A stretch of 64,000 nucleotides of DNA from Caldinitratiruptor microaerophilus (GTDB taxonomy: Bacteria; Bacillota; Sulfobacillia; Symbiobacteriales; ZC4RG38): assembly GCF_025999835.1 (NCBI RefSeq), contig NZ_AP025628.1, positions 434,001 through 498,000 of the forward strand. The letters run 5' to 3'. The translations under genes and the position numbers were made by a program. Under the pieces are notes generated by a model that was not told where the DNA came from, did not search any database, and saw only the letters and a list, made by a program, of their open reading frames with translations. Positions 2,484-5,866 of the stretch are shown one piece after another; positions within the stretch are counted from its first letter, which is position 1; each line of letters begins with the position of its first letter.

Positions 2484-3302
2484 GTGAGGCGCAATCGAAG
2501 GCTGTGGGCTGCGTTGGTAGCGCTGGTGGCGGTCCTGGTGGGCGGGGTGGCTTCGGCGGCGACGCCGCTGTTCCGTGGGTTCAGGACGGTCCGGGTGGTG
2601 CTTGAAGGCAGGGAGATCCAGGCCGACGTGCCGGGGGTGATCCTGGAGGGACGCACCGTGCTGCCGGTGCGGGCACTGGCGGAGGCGCTGGGCCTCAAGG
2701 TGTCCTGGGACGAGGCGACCAGCACCGTGGTGCTCGAGCGCCAGAGCCCGCCTTCCGGTGCGCAGGAACAGGGCCCCGACGCCGGAGCGCGGCAGGCAAG
2801 TACAGAGCTCGCCATCAAGACGAAGAGCACTCCGAAGGGGCTGGCGAGCCCCAGCGGGGTCACGCTTACGGTTGAGAACGTAACCATGAATACGAACCTG
2901 TCCGAACGCCTGGCCGTCCCGTCGGCGATGATCGTCATGGAGGGCACCCTCGCGAACGCCGGCCGGGCGCCGTACGATCTCGCCCAGGCGCGGGTCACGC
3001 TGCGCAGCGTGGCGCCGGATGAGGCCGGTCGGATCGTGAAGGGGCCGGAAGTCCAGGGTGTGCTGGCCCAGCCTTCCGGCGAGCGGGTGGCGGGCACCCT
3101 GGCCCCGGGCCAGTCGATCCCCGTGCGGCTCGTGTTCCGGGTGCCGGACGGCTCGGTGCCGGTGCCCGGCGAGCTGGAGCTGTCCTTCAGCGGCGCGCCG
3201 GGTGAGGCGCCCGTGACGGAACGGGTCAACGTCACGATCCGGTGCAGCTGGCCGCCGCTGAAATGCGAGATCGTCATCGTCATCGGCAAGGCGACGGATT
3301 GA
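2484..3302 (+). CDS. Secreted protein with copper-amine-oxidase-N (stalk) domain
   Basis: 272 residues with a clear signal peptide (RRNRR, then a hydrophobic stretch ending GVASAA). After cleavage comes a stalk domain of the copper amine oxidase N-terminal type: GREIQADVPG, the signature GRTVLPVRALAEALG, then VSWDEATSTVVL. Such domains are common in exported Firmicutes proteins and probably bind cell wall or stack as surface modules. The rest resembles a beta-sandwich (VTLTVENVTMN, LAPGQSIPVRLVFRVPD) similar to DUF4352-type domains, and carries two cysteines near the end. The start is GTG with GGAGGGG eight bases upstream. The next gene is the membrane-tethered sigma factor, but a terminator-like hairpin separates them. 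The specific role is unknown. Confidence 0.8.
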   Translation: MRRNRRLWAALVALVAVLVGGVASAATPLFRGFRTVRVVLEGREIQADVPGVILEGRTVLPVRALAEALGLKVSWDEATSTVVLERQSPPSGAQEQGPDAGARQASTELAIKTKSTPKGLASPSGVTLTVENVTMNTNLSERLAVPSAMIVMEGTLANAGRAPYDLAQARVTLRSVAPDEAGRIVKGPEVQGVLAQPSGERVAGTLAPGQSIPVRLVFRVPDGSVPVPGELELSFSGAPGEAPVTERVNVTIRCSWPPLKCEIVIVIGKATD

Positions 3303-3350: not shown

Positions 3351-3448
3351 GTCTTGCCGGGGAAGGCAGGGGATGACCCCTCCGGCGCCGAATCCCGGTG
3401 GCGTTGCCAGGGAGCGAGCGGGATGGGGCTGGCGGGGGTGAGGCCGTC

Positions 3449-5866
3449 GTGGCGCAGGAGCCGCATGGCGACGAGGAACTGGCCGCCCGGGCGGGCGCCG
3501 GCGACCGGCAGGCCGTGGAGGCGCTGTTTCACCGCTACTTCGACCGGGTCTACGACCTCGCCCTCGGCATGCTCCGGGACCCGGACGCGGCCGGCGACGT
3601 GGCCCAGGCGACTTTCGTGAAGGCCATGGAGCGTCTGCGAAGTGGCCCGCCGCCCCGTGGCTTCCGGGCGTGGCTGTACGCCATCGCCCGGAACACGGCG
3701 ATCGACGAGCTGCGCGGGCGCCGGCGCCGCCTGCCGTGGCCGGGGGTTTCCACGGAGGAGGGGGAGACCCTGGACTACGAGCCCCCGGCTCCGGCCGCCT
3801 GGGCGGAGCCGGAGCAGGTGGTGGCCGACCGCGAGACGGCGGCCCTGGTCTGGGAGGCCGCCGCCGGGTTGAGCCCGGACGACCGCCTGCTCCTCGACCT
3901 GCACCTGCGCAAGGGACTGGAACCCGGGGAGATCGCCCGGGTCCTGGGGGCCCGCCCCGGAAGCGTGTACACTCGCCTCAGCCGCCTCCGGGATGCCCTG
4001 GAGGAGAGCGTCAGCGCCCTGATCCTGTACCGGCGGGGTCGTGGCCGCTGCCGGGAGCTGGAGGCCCTGGTGGCGCGGTACGGCGGCGAGACGCTCACGC
4101 CGGTCCTGCGGAAGGCGGTGAACCGGCACCTGGAAAACTGCGGCGTCTGTCGGGAGAGCCGGCGGCGGTTCGTCGCCGCCGGCGCCCTGTTCGGCGCCGT
4201 ACCCCTGTTCGTGGCGCCGGCACGCGTGCGGGCCAGTGCCCTGTCGTCCGCCCTGAGTGCGGCCGGTGGGACGGGTCCGGGCGGGGTGCGCGGCTCGCGG
4301 GGGCATCTTTCCGCGTCCGCCCGGATCGGCCTGGGCGCGGCGGCCGCCGCCGCCGTGGGCCTGGCGGGCTGGGCGGTGGCCGGTCGCCTGGAGGGCCGCC
4401 CGGCCTCATCCCCGACCGTCTCCGCGGCACCTGTCCGCACCGGCCCACCGCCGGCACCGCCATCCTCCGGTGCGCCGGCCGCGATGTCGAGTGGCGCCGC
4501 CGGACGGCTCGAGATCGCCGCTTTCCGGCTGGTGGGCACGGGGCCGGAACCGGCGGAAGTGACCGGAAGTCGAGAGGTGACGGTCGAGGCCATGGCGACC
4601 GGGGCGGACGCCTGGCTGGTGGCCGAGGGCGCGGCCGAAGCGCCCGACCCCGGGGACCCTCGCTGGGCGCCGACCGTACCCGACCACTTCCTCCTGAGTC
4701 CCGGCGACGGGGCCAAGACCGTGTACCTCTGGATCCGGGACGGGGCGGGTCACGTGGCCGGAGCCCAGGCGCGCCTGTTCCTGGACACGGCGCCGCCTCC
4801 GGCGCCCACGGCGCTCCGGAGTCCGAGCCATGAGGCCGGCCGGGAGTCGGCGGAAAACGTGGTGACCGTCACGTGGCAAGCGCCAGGCGACCCGCCTCCC
4901 GCCAGCGGGCTGGCCGGCTACGCGAGCCGCTGGGACAATCCCGGCGAGGCCCTTCCCGGTGAGGTGAACCTCGGCCCCGGGGCGACTCGGGCCGTGAGCC
5001 CCCCGCTCCGGCCCGGCCGCTGGTACTTCCTGATCCAGGCGGTGGACCGGGCCGGCAACCGCAGCCCGGTCGCTCGGGCAGGTCCCTTCGTGATCGTGGC
5101 CGGGTCGCCTTCGCCCCCTCCGGCGGACGCCGGGCCGGTACCGGAGGGAGACGCTGCTCAGGCCCCGGAGGAAGGCGCCGCCCCATCGGCCGCCCGGCCC
5201 GGCTCCGCAGTGCGGCCGGATCCGGAACCGCCCCCGCCGCCTGTCATCGACCGCTTCGTGCTCCGGGACCCGGATCGCGGCACAGCCGGTCTCACGGGCT
5301 CGCTGCGGGCCAGCGTCTCCCTGCGCGTCTCCGGTACGGTGCGGGGCTGGCTGGTGGCGGAGGACCGGCCCGAAGCACCGGCACCGGAGGACCCGGACTG
5401 GGCGGCGGCAGCCCCGGAGACGGTGGTGCTGTCACCGGGAGAGGGGCGGCGCACCGTGTACGCGTGGGTCCTGGGCGAGGGCGGTGCGGTGGTGGGCGAA
5501 CGGACGACGATTGTTGTCGATACGGTGCCACCCGGCCCCGTGCAGGAACTGGGCAGCCCCACCCACCGTCCCGGTGCGGTGAGCCAGGCCGAACGGGTCC
5601 GGGTGACGTGGGCGCCGGCCACCGACGAAACCCCCGGAAGCGGGGTTGCCGGGTACGTGGTCCGCTGGCTGGATGGCAAGGGGAACGTACTCGGGAAGGA
5701 ACTCCTGCCCGTCACCGCCCTCGAGGCGGAGAGCCCGCCGCTGTCCCCGGGCGTGGACTGCTACGTCGAGGTCTGGGCCGTCGACCGGGCCGGGCACCGT
5801 GGCCCTGCCGCTCGCCTGGGGCCTTTCCTCGTGGCGGCCGCGGACAGCACCGCGGCGCAGCCGTAG
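3449..5866 (+). CDS. ECF sigma factor fused to zinc anti-sigma-like domain, TM anchor and Ig/FN3-like repeats
   Basis: 805 residues, about four times a normal ECF sigma factor. Residues 10-85 form sigma region 2 (FDRVYDLALGMLRDPDAAGD) and about 140-187 region 4 (LSPDDRLLL to LRDALEE). Next comes HLENCGVC (His227, Cys231, Cys234), the H-x3-C-x2-C signature of zinc anti-sigma domains. A hydrophobic segment follows at 292-313, then a Pro/Ala-rich linker. The rest is two tandem copies (about 353-575 and 598-805) of an Ig-like module (WLVAE...LSPGDG...TVYLW) followed by a fibronectin-III-like module (VTVTWQAP...GLAGY). I chose the GTG at 3449 (GGTGAGG upstream; typical ECF start DEELAARAGAGDR). 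The sigma part should lie in the cytoplasm and the repeats outside. Release by proteolysis is inference. Confidence 0.85.
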   Translation: MAQEPHGDEELAARAGAGDRQAVEALFHRYFDRVYDLALGMLRDPDAAGDVAQATFVKAMERLRSGPPPRGFRAWLYAIARNTAIDELRGRRRRLPWPGVSTEEGETLDYEPPAPAAWAEPEQVVADRETAALVWEAAAGLSPDDRLLLDLHLRKGLEPGEIARVLGARPGSVYTRLSRLRDALEESVSALILYRRGRGRCRELEALVARYGGETLTPVLRKAVNRHLENCGVCRESRRRFVAAGALFGAVPLFVAPARVRASALSSALSAAGGTGPGGVRGSRGHLSASARIGLGAAAAAAVGLAGWAVAGRLEGRPASSPTVSAAPVRTGPPPAPPSSGAPAAMSSGAAGRLEIAAFRLVGTGPEPAEVTGSREVTVEAMATGADAWLVAEGAAEAPDPGDPRWAPTVPDHFLLSPGDGAKTVYLWIRDGAGHVAGAQARLFLDTAPPPAPTALRSPSHEAGRESAENVVTVTWQAPGDPPPASGLAGYASRWDNPGEALPGEVNLGPGATRAVSPPLRPGRWYFLIQAVDRAGNRSPVARAGPFVIVAGSPSPPPADAGPVPEGDAAQAPEEGAAPSAARPGSAVRPDPEPPPPPVIDRFVLRDPDRGTAGLTGSLRASVSLRVSGTVRGWLVAEDRPEAPAPEDPDWAAAAPETVVLSPGEGRRTVYAWVLGEGGAVVGERTTIVVDTVPPGPVQELGSPTHRPGAVSQAERVRVTWAPATDETPGSGVAGYVVRWLDGKGNVLGKELLPVTALEAESPPLSPGVDCYVEVWAVDRAGHRGPAARLGPFLVAAADSTAAQP

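What the first reader, a model, noticed from the sequence alone, without database searches (positions are those of the whole stretch)
3449..5866. Membrane-tethered ECF sigma factor fused to its own anti-sigma-like domain and a double Ig/FN3 surface module
The sequence shows one uninterrupted 805-residue frame: sigma regions 2 and 4, then an H-x3-C-x2-C zinc anti-sigma signature (His227, Cys231, Cys234), a membrane helix at 292-313, and two tandem copies of an Ig-like plus FN3-like unit. ECF sigma factors and their ZAS anti-sigma partners are normally separate proteins. Here sensor, anchor, inhibitor and effector form one chain, so activation would seem to need cutting, as in regulated intramembrane proteolysis. 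No separate anti-sigma gene is near. The preceding gene encodes a secreted stalk-domain protein that could be ligand or target. The mechanism is inference; the domain order is seen. I consider this the best candidate here for a poorly described system.
Basis: partly seen in the sequence, partly recalled or inferred. Interest (0 to 1): 0.78.

Follow-up and report, generated by a model that had tools for sequence, protein, structure and literature searches.

The report
Membrane-tethered sigma factor with built-in inhibitor
This hot-spring bacterium has a single protein that joins a gene switch (an ECF sigma factor), its predicted zinc-containing inhibitor, a membrane anchor and an outer sensor-like arm; such one-piece switches are already known in Actinobacteria, so this is a new member of a known kind, unusual for its host group and its outer arm.

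Summary
One open frame (GTG 3449 to TAG 5866, 805 aa) encodes ECF sigma regions 2 and 4, a zinc anti-sigma (ZAS) domain (Cys201, His227, Cys231, Cys234), one membrane helix (about 290-311) and two outer beta-sandwich units that are 45% identical. It is not an assembly artefact: the genome is a closed 3,599,694-bp contig, and fused homologues with the same linker and all four ligands occur in Thermomicrobium (47% identity) and many Actinomycetota. In a sigma-only tree, 18 fused proteins form one clade (100/99). The window protein groups with Thermomicrobium and a Chloroflexi MAG (97/95), not with Bacillota ECFs. No other sampled genome of its class or phylum has it at the cut-offs used, so transfer is likely. 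The architecture and a release-by-proteolysis model are already published for ECF48/52/53; IutY is the experimentally shown analogue. AlphaFold places sigma2/sigma4 as in anti-sigma-bound structures, not as in RNA-polymerase-bound ones. Best reading: a self-inhibited, membrane-tethered ECF sigma factor freed by proteolysis. New points: the host (Caldinitratiruptor, Bacillota) and the outer module. 'Normally separate' and 'poorly described system' are overstated; the neighbouring stalk protein as ligand is unsupported.

The parts
3437..3443 (+). Shine-Dalgarno-like GGTGAGG, 5 nt before the GTG start
   Evidence: sequence
3449..5866 (+). whole gene: 805-aa ECF sigma / ZAS anti-sigma / TM / outer-module protein
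   Evidence: open frame; fused homologues
3524..3730 (+). sigma-70 region 2 (residues 26-94)
   Evidence: Pfam PF04542 E 1.4e-15; fold
3848..4000 (+). sigma-70 region 4 (residues 134-184)
   Evidence: Pfam PF08281 E 1.8e-6
4049..4153 (+). ZAS / zf-HC2 domain (residues 201-235); ligand candidates C201, H227, C231, C234
   Evidence: Pfam PF13490; four residues invariant in 15 fused proteins
4172..4261 (+). residues 242-271: hydrophobic/amphipathic helices after the zinc knuckle, taken as the last part of the anti-sigma domain, not as a membrane helix
   Evidence: model helices 244-250 and 258-271; not membrane-like in closest relatives
4316..4381 (+). single membrane helix (residues 290-311), N-terminus inside
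   Evidence: model helix 290-311; hydropathy; aligned with the membrane helix of relatives; 4 K/R and 0 D/E before it against 3 K/R and 1 D/E after it
4382..4489 (+). proline/alanine/serine-rich linker (residues 312-347), predicted disordered
   Evidence: sequence; pLDDT under 50 up to residue 333, the end of the model
4490..5101 (+). outer unit 1: Ig-like plus FN3-like beta-sandwiches (residues 348-551)
   Evidence: fn3 match; AlphaFold all-beta; Foldseek to FN3 tandems
5102..5233 (+). second proline-rich linker (residues 552-595)
   Evidence: sequence
5234..5863 (+). outer unit 2, 45% identical to unit 1 (residues 596-805)

Best explanation
The gene encodes a one-piece transmembrane signalling protein: an ECF sigma factor held at the membrane and kept inactive by a ZAS anti-sigma domain fused behind region 4, with a single membrane helix and an outer arm of two Ig/FN3-like units. 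Shown here: domain order, zinc-ligand conservation, descent from an old fused lineage. Predicted here: one membrane helix, outside location of the arm, and a closed sigma2/sigma4 arrangement as in anti-sigma-bound ECFs. Inferred: an outside event acting on the Ig/FN3 arm (ligand, cell-wall contact or loss of contact) exposes the chain to a first protease; a site-2 protease (M50) then cuts in the membrane helix; the freed sigma-ZAS fragment is trimmed or loses zinc, opens and binds RNA polymerase. The gene was probably acquired from a thermophilic Thermomicrobia-like or actinobacterial source, with the outer arm added or exchanged.
For: Domains. Fused homologues keep the linker and all four ligands. 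Closest named: Thermomicrobium roseum TRD_RS13910, 436 aa, 47% identity over residues 8-254. The fused core (no stop inside) is in 9 of 81 genomes of the Thermomicrobium class and 17 of 98 Actinomycetes. Sigma-only tree: 18 fused proteins one clade 100/99; window with Thermomicrobium and a Chloroflexi MAG 97/95. The AlphaFold core superposes on CnrH-CnrY (Z 13.3, 3.4 A over 152) and SigW-RsiW (Z 13.1, 3.5 A over 154), against 26-28 A over about 130-155 residues for RNA-polymerase-bound sigmaE/sigmaH. M50 proteases are present in the genome, one with E 5e-57. Literature: truncation and autoregulation data for ECF52 SCO4117 (PMC5826349); IutY is cut by Prc and RseP (PMC5411451).
Against: No experiment on this protein. 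M50 proteases are universal (14 of 14 controls), so their presence proves little. The closed model comes from a 15-sequence alignment, with pLDDT under 50 in the sigma2-sigma4 linker, and no control without the ZAS could be run; AlphaFold may favour closed ECFs anyway. The membrane helix is alanine-rich and only moderately hydrophobic. No recognisable own promoter or target promoter was found.
Confidence: 0.68

Rival explanations
1. Self-inhibited, membrane-tethered sigma factor activated without cutting: a ligand or zinc/thiol change (oxidation of Cys231/Cys234) loosens the ZAS domain in place, and the sigma works from the membrane or after local opening.
For: Soluble anti-sigmas with a ZAS domain normally respond to oxidative stress by a conformational change (PMC8999054); the ZAS ligands are invariant.
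Against: A large outer arm and a conserved membrane helix argue for an outside signal; the studied single-chain case IutY needs proteolysis.
Confidence: 0.17
2. The sigma part has lost or largely lost promoter function and the protein is mainly a surface adhesin or structural protein with a vestigial cytoplasmic head.
For: The outer arm makes up about 60% of the chain; sigma region 4 and ZAS Pfam scores are modest.
Against: Regions 2 and 4, the linker and the zinc ligands are conserved at 47% identity with T. roseum; sigma region 2 scores E 1.4e-15.
Confidence: 0.07
3. Sequencing or assembly error joining two genes.
For: The fusion is absent from family and order mates.
Against: Closed single-contig PacBio assembly (PMC9933637); many independent genomes carry the same fused core without a stop; conserved linker.
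Confidence: 0.01
4. The internal in-frame GTG at 4070 (codon 208, GGAGG 5 nt upstream) makes a separate anti-sigma product, so the locus yields both a fused and a free inhibitor.
For: Good spacing of an SD-like motif.
Against: 1.2 such sites are expected by codon shuffling; no such site in the three nearest relatives checked; the product would lack Cys201.
Confidence: 0.04

Closest known systems
ECF52 group, SCO4117 of Streptomyces coelicolor (PMC5826349)
   Same: ECF sigma, zinc-finger domain, membrane helix, proline-rich stretch and outer binding domain in one chain; release by proteolysis proposed
   Different: ECF52 reported as Actinobacteria-only and with a carbohydrate-binding outer domain; here Bacillota, two Ig/FN3-like units. 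Group membership by sequence could not be tested (no ECF52 profile or SCO4117 sequence at hand).
ECF48 and ECF53 groups (PMC8999054, PMC10766802)
   Same: C-terminal fused zinc finger plus one or two membrane helices, expected activation by proteolysis
   Different: described from Actinobacteria; some ECF52/53 proteins have predicted glycosyl hydrolase or carbohydrate-binding outer domains; membership not tested
TRD_RS13910 of Thermomicrobium roseum (WP_012642865.1) and Thermomicrobia relatives
   Same: 47% identity over sigma plus ZAS, same linker, same four ligands, one membrane helix
   Different: short outer domain (about 110 aa) without Ig/FN3 units
IutY of Pseudomonas putida, ECF243 (PMC5411451)
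   Same: ECF sigma and membrane anti-sigma domain in one polypeptide; release by Prc and RseP shown
   Different: iron cell-surface-signalling system with an outer-membrane receptor; its anti-sigma domain is periplasmic, not a cytoplasmic ZAS as here
SigW-RsiW and CnrH-CnrY (PDB 5wuq/5wur, 4cxf)
   Same: predicted sigma2/sigma4 arrangement of the window protein matches these anti-sigma-bound forms
   Different: there sigma and anti-sigma are separate proteins

Membership tests
ECF (group 4) sigma-70 factors | regions 2 and 4 without regions 1 and 3 | tested here: met
   Pfam/NCBIfam (TIGR02937 83.4 bits against cut-off 42.9); PDB sequence and fold matches
ZAS anti-sigma domains | H-x3-C-x2-C plus an upstream ligand | tested here: met
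   H227-C231-C234 and C201, invariant in relatives; zf-HC2 over cut-off, just under it
ZAS anti-sigma domains | binds zinc and inhibits its sigma factor | not testable with these tools
   needs protein; closed model is only consistent with it
Fused ECF-ZAS-TM sigma factors (ECF48/52/53-like) | sigma, zinc domain and membrane helix in one uninterrupted chain | tested here: met
Fused ECF-ZAS-TM sigma factors (ECF48/52/53-like) | common descent of the sigma domains with actinobacterial fused proteins | tested here: met
   18 fused proteins one clade, 100/99, tree of sigma domains only; that the actinobacterial rows are ECF48/52/53 by published group was not tested
ECF52 in the strict sense | membership in the ECF52 sequence group | not testable with these tools
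   no ECF group profiles or SCO4117 sequence available
ECF52 in the strict sense | carbohydrate-binding outer domain | tested here: inconclusive
   no carbohydrate-binding family hit; only fn3; Ig/FN3 folds can bind many things
ECF52 in the strict sense | occurs only in Actinobacteria (PMC5826349) | tested here: not met
   host is Caldinitratiruptor, Bacillota
RIP-activated sigma/anti-sigma systems | cut by a site-1 and a site-2 protease on signal | not testable with these tools
   M50 proteases present but universal

The most novel reading that the evidence does not exclude
A transmembrane sigma factor whose two Ig/FN3 units form a cell-wall- or surface-attached arm, so that mechanical or adhesion state at the cell surface, not a small ligand, triggers release of the sigma domain: a one-protein surface-contact-to-transcription relay in a Bacillota thermophile, made by transfer of a Thermomicrobia-type fused sigma and gain of a new sensor arm.
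Probability: 0.12. Interest if true: 0.6.

Novelty: new member of a known kind. Interest (0 to 1): 0.33.

Why it matters
It shows that one-piece, membrane-tethered ECF sigma factors are an old lineage shared by Actinomycetota and Thermomicrobia/Chloroflexota that has reached a Bacillota thermophile, with one conserved inner core and outer domains that differ between members (CAP domain; weak BACON/Ig-like and carboxypeptidase-regulatory-like matches; Ig/FN3 here). That makes the inner core a natural fusion for testing how a cis-acting ZAS domain inhibits, and possibly a chassis for swapping sensors. If release by proteolysis were confirmed it would extend a mechanism shown only for IutY among single-chain ECFs.

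Tried and rejected
The first genome-contig scan with the full protein found nothing; the core alignment worked. The first tree was discarded because rows from minus-strand loci had been translated on the wrong strand. The second tree carried eight fused rows mislabelled canonical; one search is the corrected, careful run. For one search the long-branch rows (including one Streptomyces fused protein, L062, and the ECF42-like L046) were left out. A single origin for all ECF-ZAS fusions, including Solirubrobacterales, G024 and G056, is neither supported nor rejected (AU p 0.075). Upstream footprinting among Thermomicrobium homologues gave no ECF-type promoter that carries over to the window. The promoter/terminator scan found nothing relevant, and the GC-rich intergenic hairpin is not stronger than shuffles (z -0.78). 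The outer module is not found in 40 relatives other than its own gene or in plasmids. The upstream Cu_amine_oxidN1 stalk protein as ligand: no support beyond adjacency. The Casas-Pastor 2021 classification paper is not held, so ECF group assignment could not be done.

Full report
Observation. The frame 3449-5866 (+) is real: 805 codons from GTG 3449 (GGTGAGG 5 nt upstream) to TAG 5866. Pfam finds Sigma70_r2 at 26-94, Sigma70_r4_2 at 134-184, zf-HC2 at 201-235 and fn3 matches in the C-terminal half. NCBIfam's general ECF model TIGR02937 scores 83.4 bits against a cut-off of 42.9. The zinc signature HLENCGVC is at 227-234.

Host. A mis-joined pair of genes is therefore unlikely from the start. 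The genome also holds four other zf-HC2 proteins. The one at 2152082 lies directly beside its own ECF gene (2152257-2152817), a standard separate pair, so this organism has both arrangements.

Not chance, not an artefact. tblastn of residues 1-274 against plasmid records finds a Thermomicrobium roseum protein (TRD_RS13910, 436 aa) at 47% identity over residues 8-254, and fused proteins in Nonomuraea, Streptomyces and Kitasatospora. A genome scan with the core alignment gives a Chloroflexi MAG (48%), a second Thermomicrobium (46%) and many Streptosporangiaceae, all fused and with a membrane helix after the zinc domain. Sampled genomes: 9 of 81 in the class of Thermomicrobium have the fused core without any stop; 17 of 98 Actinomycetes have it (26 matches, none with a stop). 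In the window's own class the window is the only match among 121 genomes at E 1e-36. In 299 genomes of its phylum, every other match at E 1e-25 that runs through the anti-sigma part has a stop codon inside, i.e. separate genes. These cut-offs could miss very divergent fusions; three other fused proteins in the class (L036, L019, L037) are of separate or unresolved descent.

Descent. A tree of the sigma domains only, with the fused part left out, puts 18 fused proteins on one side of a branch (bootstrap/SH-aLRT 100/99) and the window with the two Thermomicrobium proteins and the Chloroflexi MAG (97/95). The bootstrap had not fully settled, so the values are rough. The nearest relatives by path are these three, not Bacillota ECFs. 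Together with absence from two family mates and five order mates, horizontal acquisition is the simplest reading (inference). Whether all ECF-ZAS fusions share one origin is open (AU p 0.075).

Fold. The AlphaFold core (333 residues, mean pLDDT 76.5, pTM 0.68) has a long helix 170-199 leading from region 4 into the ZAS helices 202-271, then a helix 290-311. Its sigma2/sigma4 arrangement matches anti-sigma-bound ECFs: CnrH-CnrY, Z 13.3, 3.4 A over 152 residues; SigW-RsiW, Z 13.1, 3.5 A over 154. RNA-polymerase-bound sigmaE/sigmaH superpose over the whole only at 26-28 A (Foldseek). Not every anti-sigma-bound ECF matches over both domains (for RseA- and MucA-bound sigmas only region 2 was aligned). 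This is what a cis-inhibited sigma should look like, but the alignment is shallow and the control without ZAS was not possible. Outer unit 1 is all-beta with FN3-type neighbours; its C-terminal FN3 half is mostly confident (pLDDT about 80-94, one loop lower) and its N-terminal Ig-like half is not (about 55-73). Units 1 and 2 are 45% identical. No copy was found elsewhere in this genome, in 40 relatives or in plasmids.

Topology. One membrane helix at 290-311 aligns with the helix of the relatives. The 242-260 hydrophobic stretch corresponds to a stretch that is not membrane-like in the nearest relatives, although some Streptomyces and Kitasatospora members also have a hydrophobic stretch there. 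With the sigma domain necessarily in the cytoplasm, one helix puts the Ig/FN3 arm outside. Charges flanking the helix agree weakly.

Mechanism and prior knowledge. The architecture and the idea of activation by proteolysis are in the literature. ECF48, ECF52 and ECF53 are described as C-terminal fusions with a zinc finger (likely ZAS) and one or two membrane helices, expected to be released by proteolysis; IutY is the experimentally shown case (PMC8999054; PMC5411451). For SCO4117 (ECF52) a truncated sigma-only version still modulates development and activates its own gene (PMC5826349). Some ECF52/53 proteins carry predicted carbohydrate-binding or glycosyl hydrolase domains (PMC10766802). ECF52 is reported as Actinobacteria-only (PMC5826349), so this gene and the Thermomicrobia set extend the architecture, though strict group membership could not be tested.

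Verdict. Observation confirmed; interpretation partly supported; new member of a known kind, with a new outer module and an unusual host. The signal, the proteases and the regulon remain unknown.

Noticed in passing
window 4070-4072: In-frame internal GTG (codon 208) with GGAGG 5 nt upstream could start a free anti-sigma product; about 1.2 such sites are expected by chance and it is not seen in three relatives.
   Followed up: partly
L037:1618-5259 (G056, same class): Another ECF-ZAS fusion, without an early membrane helix, whose tail looks like a transglutaminase-type domain (by eye, not HMM-tested); it falls outside the main fused clade on a long branch.
   Followed up: partly
L036 and L019 (G024, same class): Two ECF-ZAS fusions in one genome, sister to each other but outside the main fused clade.
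   Followed up: partly
L039:2218-4152 (G006, same order): ECF sigma fused to a long alpha-helical, HEAT-repeat-like tail with no zinc motif (by eye).
   Followed up: no
L184/L189 (G354:C944:11480-13700, Actinospica); G485:C1:4896829-4899252: Two different fused ECF-ZAS proteins encoded within about 2.5 kb of each other in two actinobacterial genomes.
   Followed up: no
G000:C1:498362-499315 (about 360 bp past the window's right end): M50 site-2 protease (E 5e-57), a candidate for the inferred intramembrane cut.
   Followed up: no
window 2484-3302: Upstream co-directional gene for a protein with a Cu_amine_oxidN1 (stalk) domain; 146-bp gap with a GC-rich hairpin no stronger than shuffles.
   Followed up: partly
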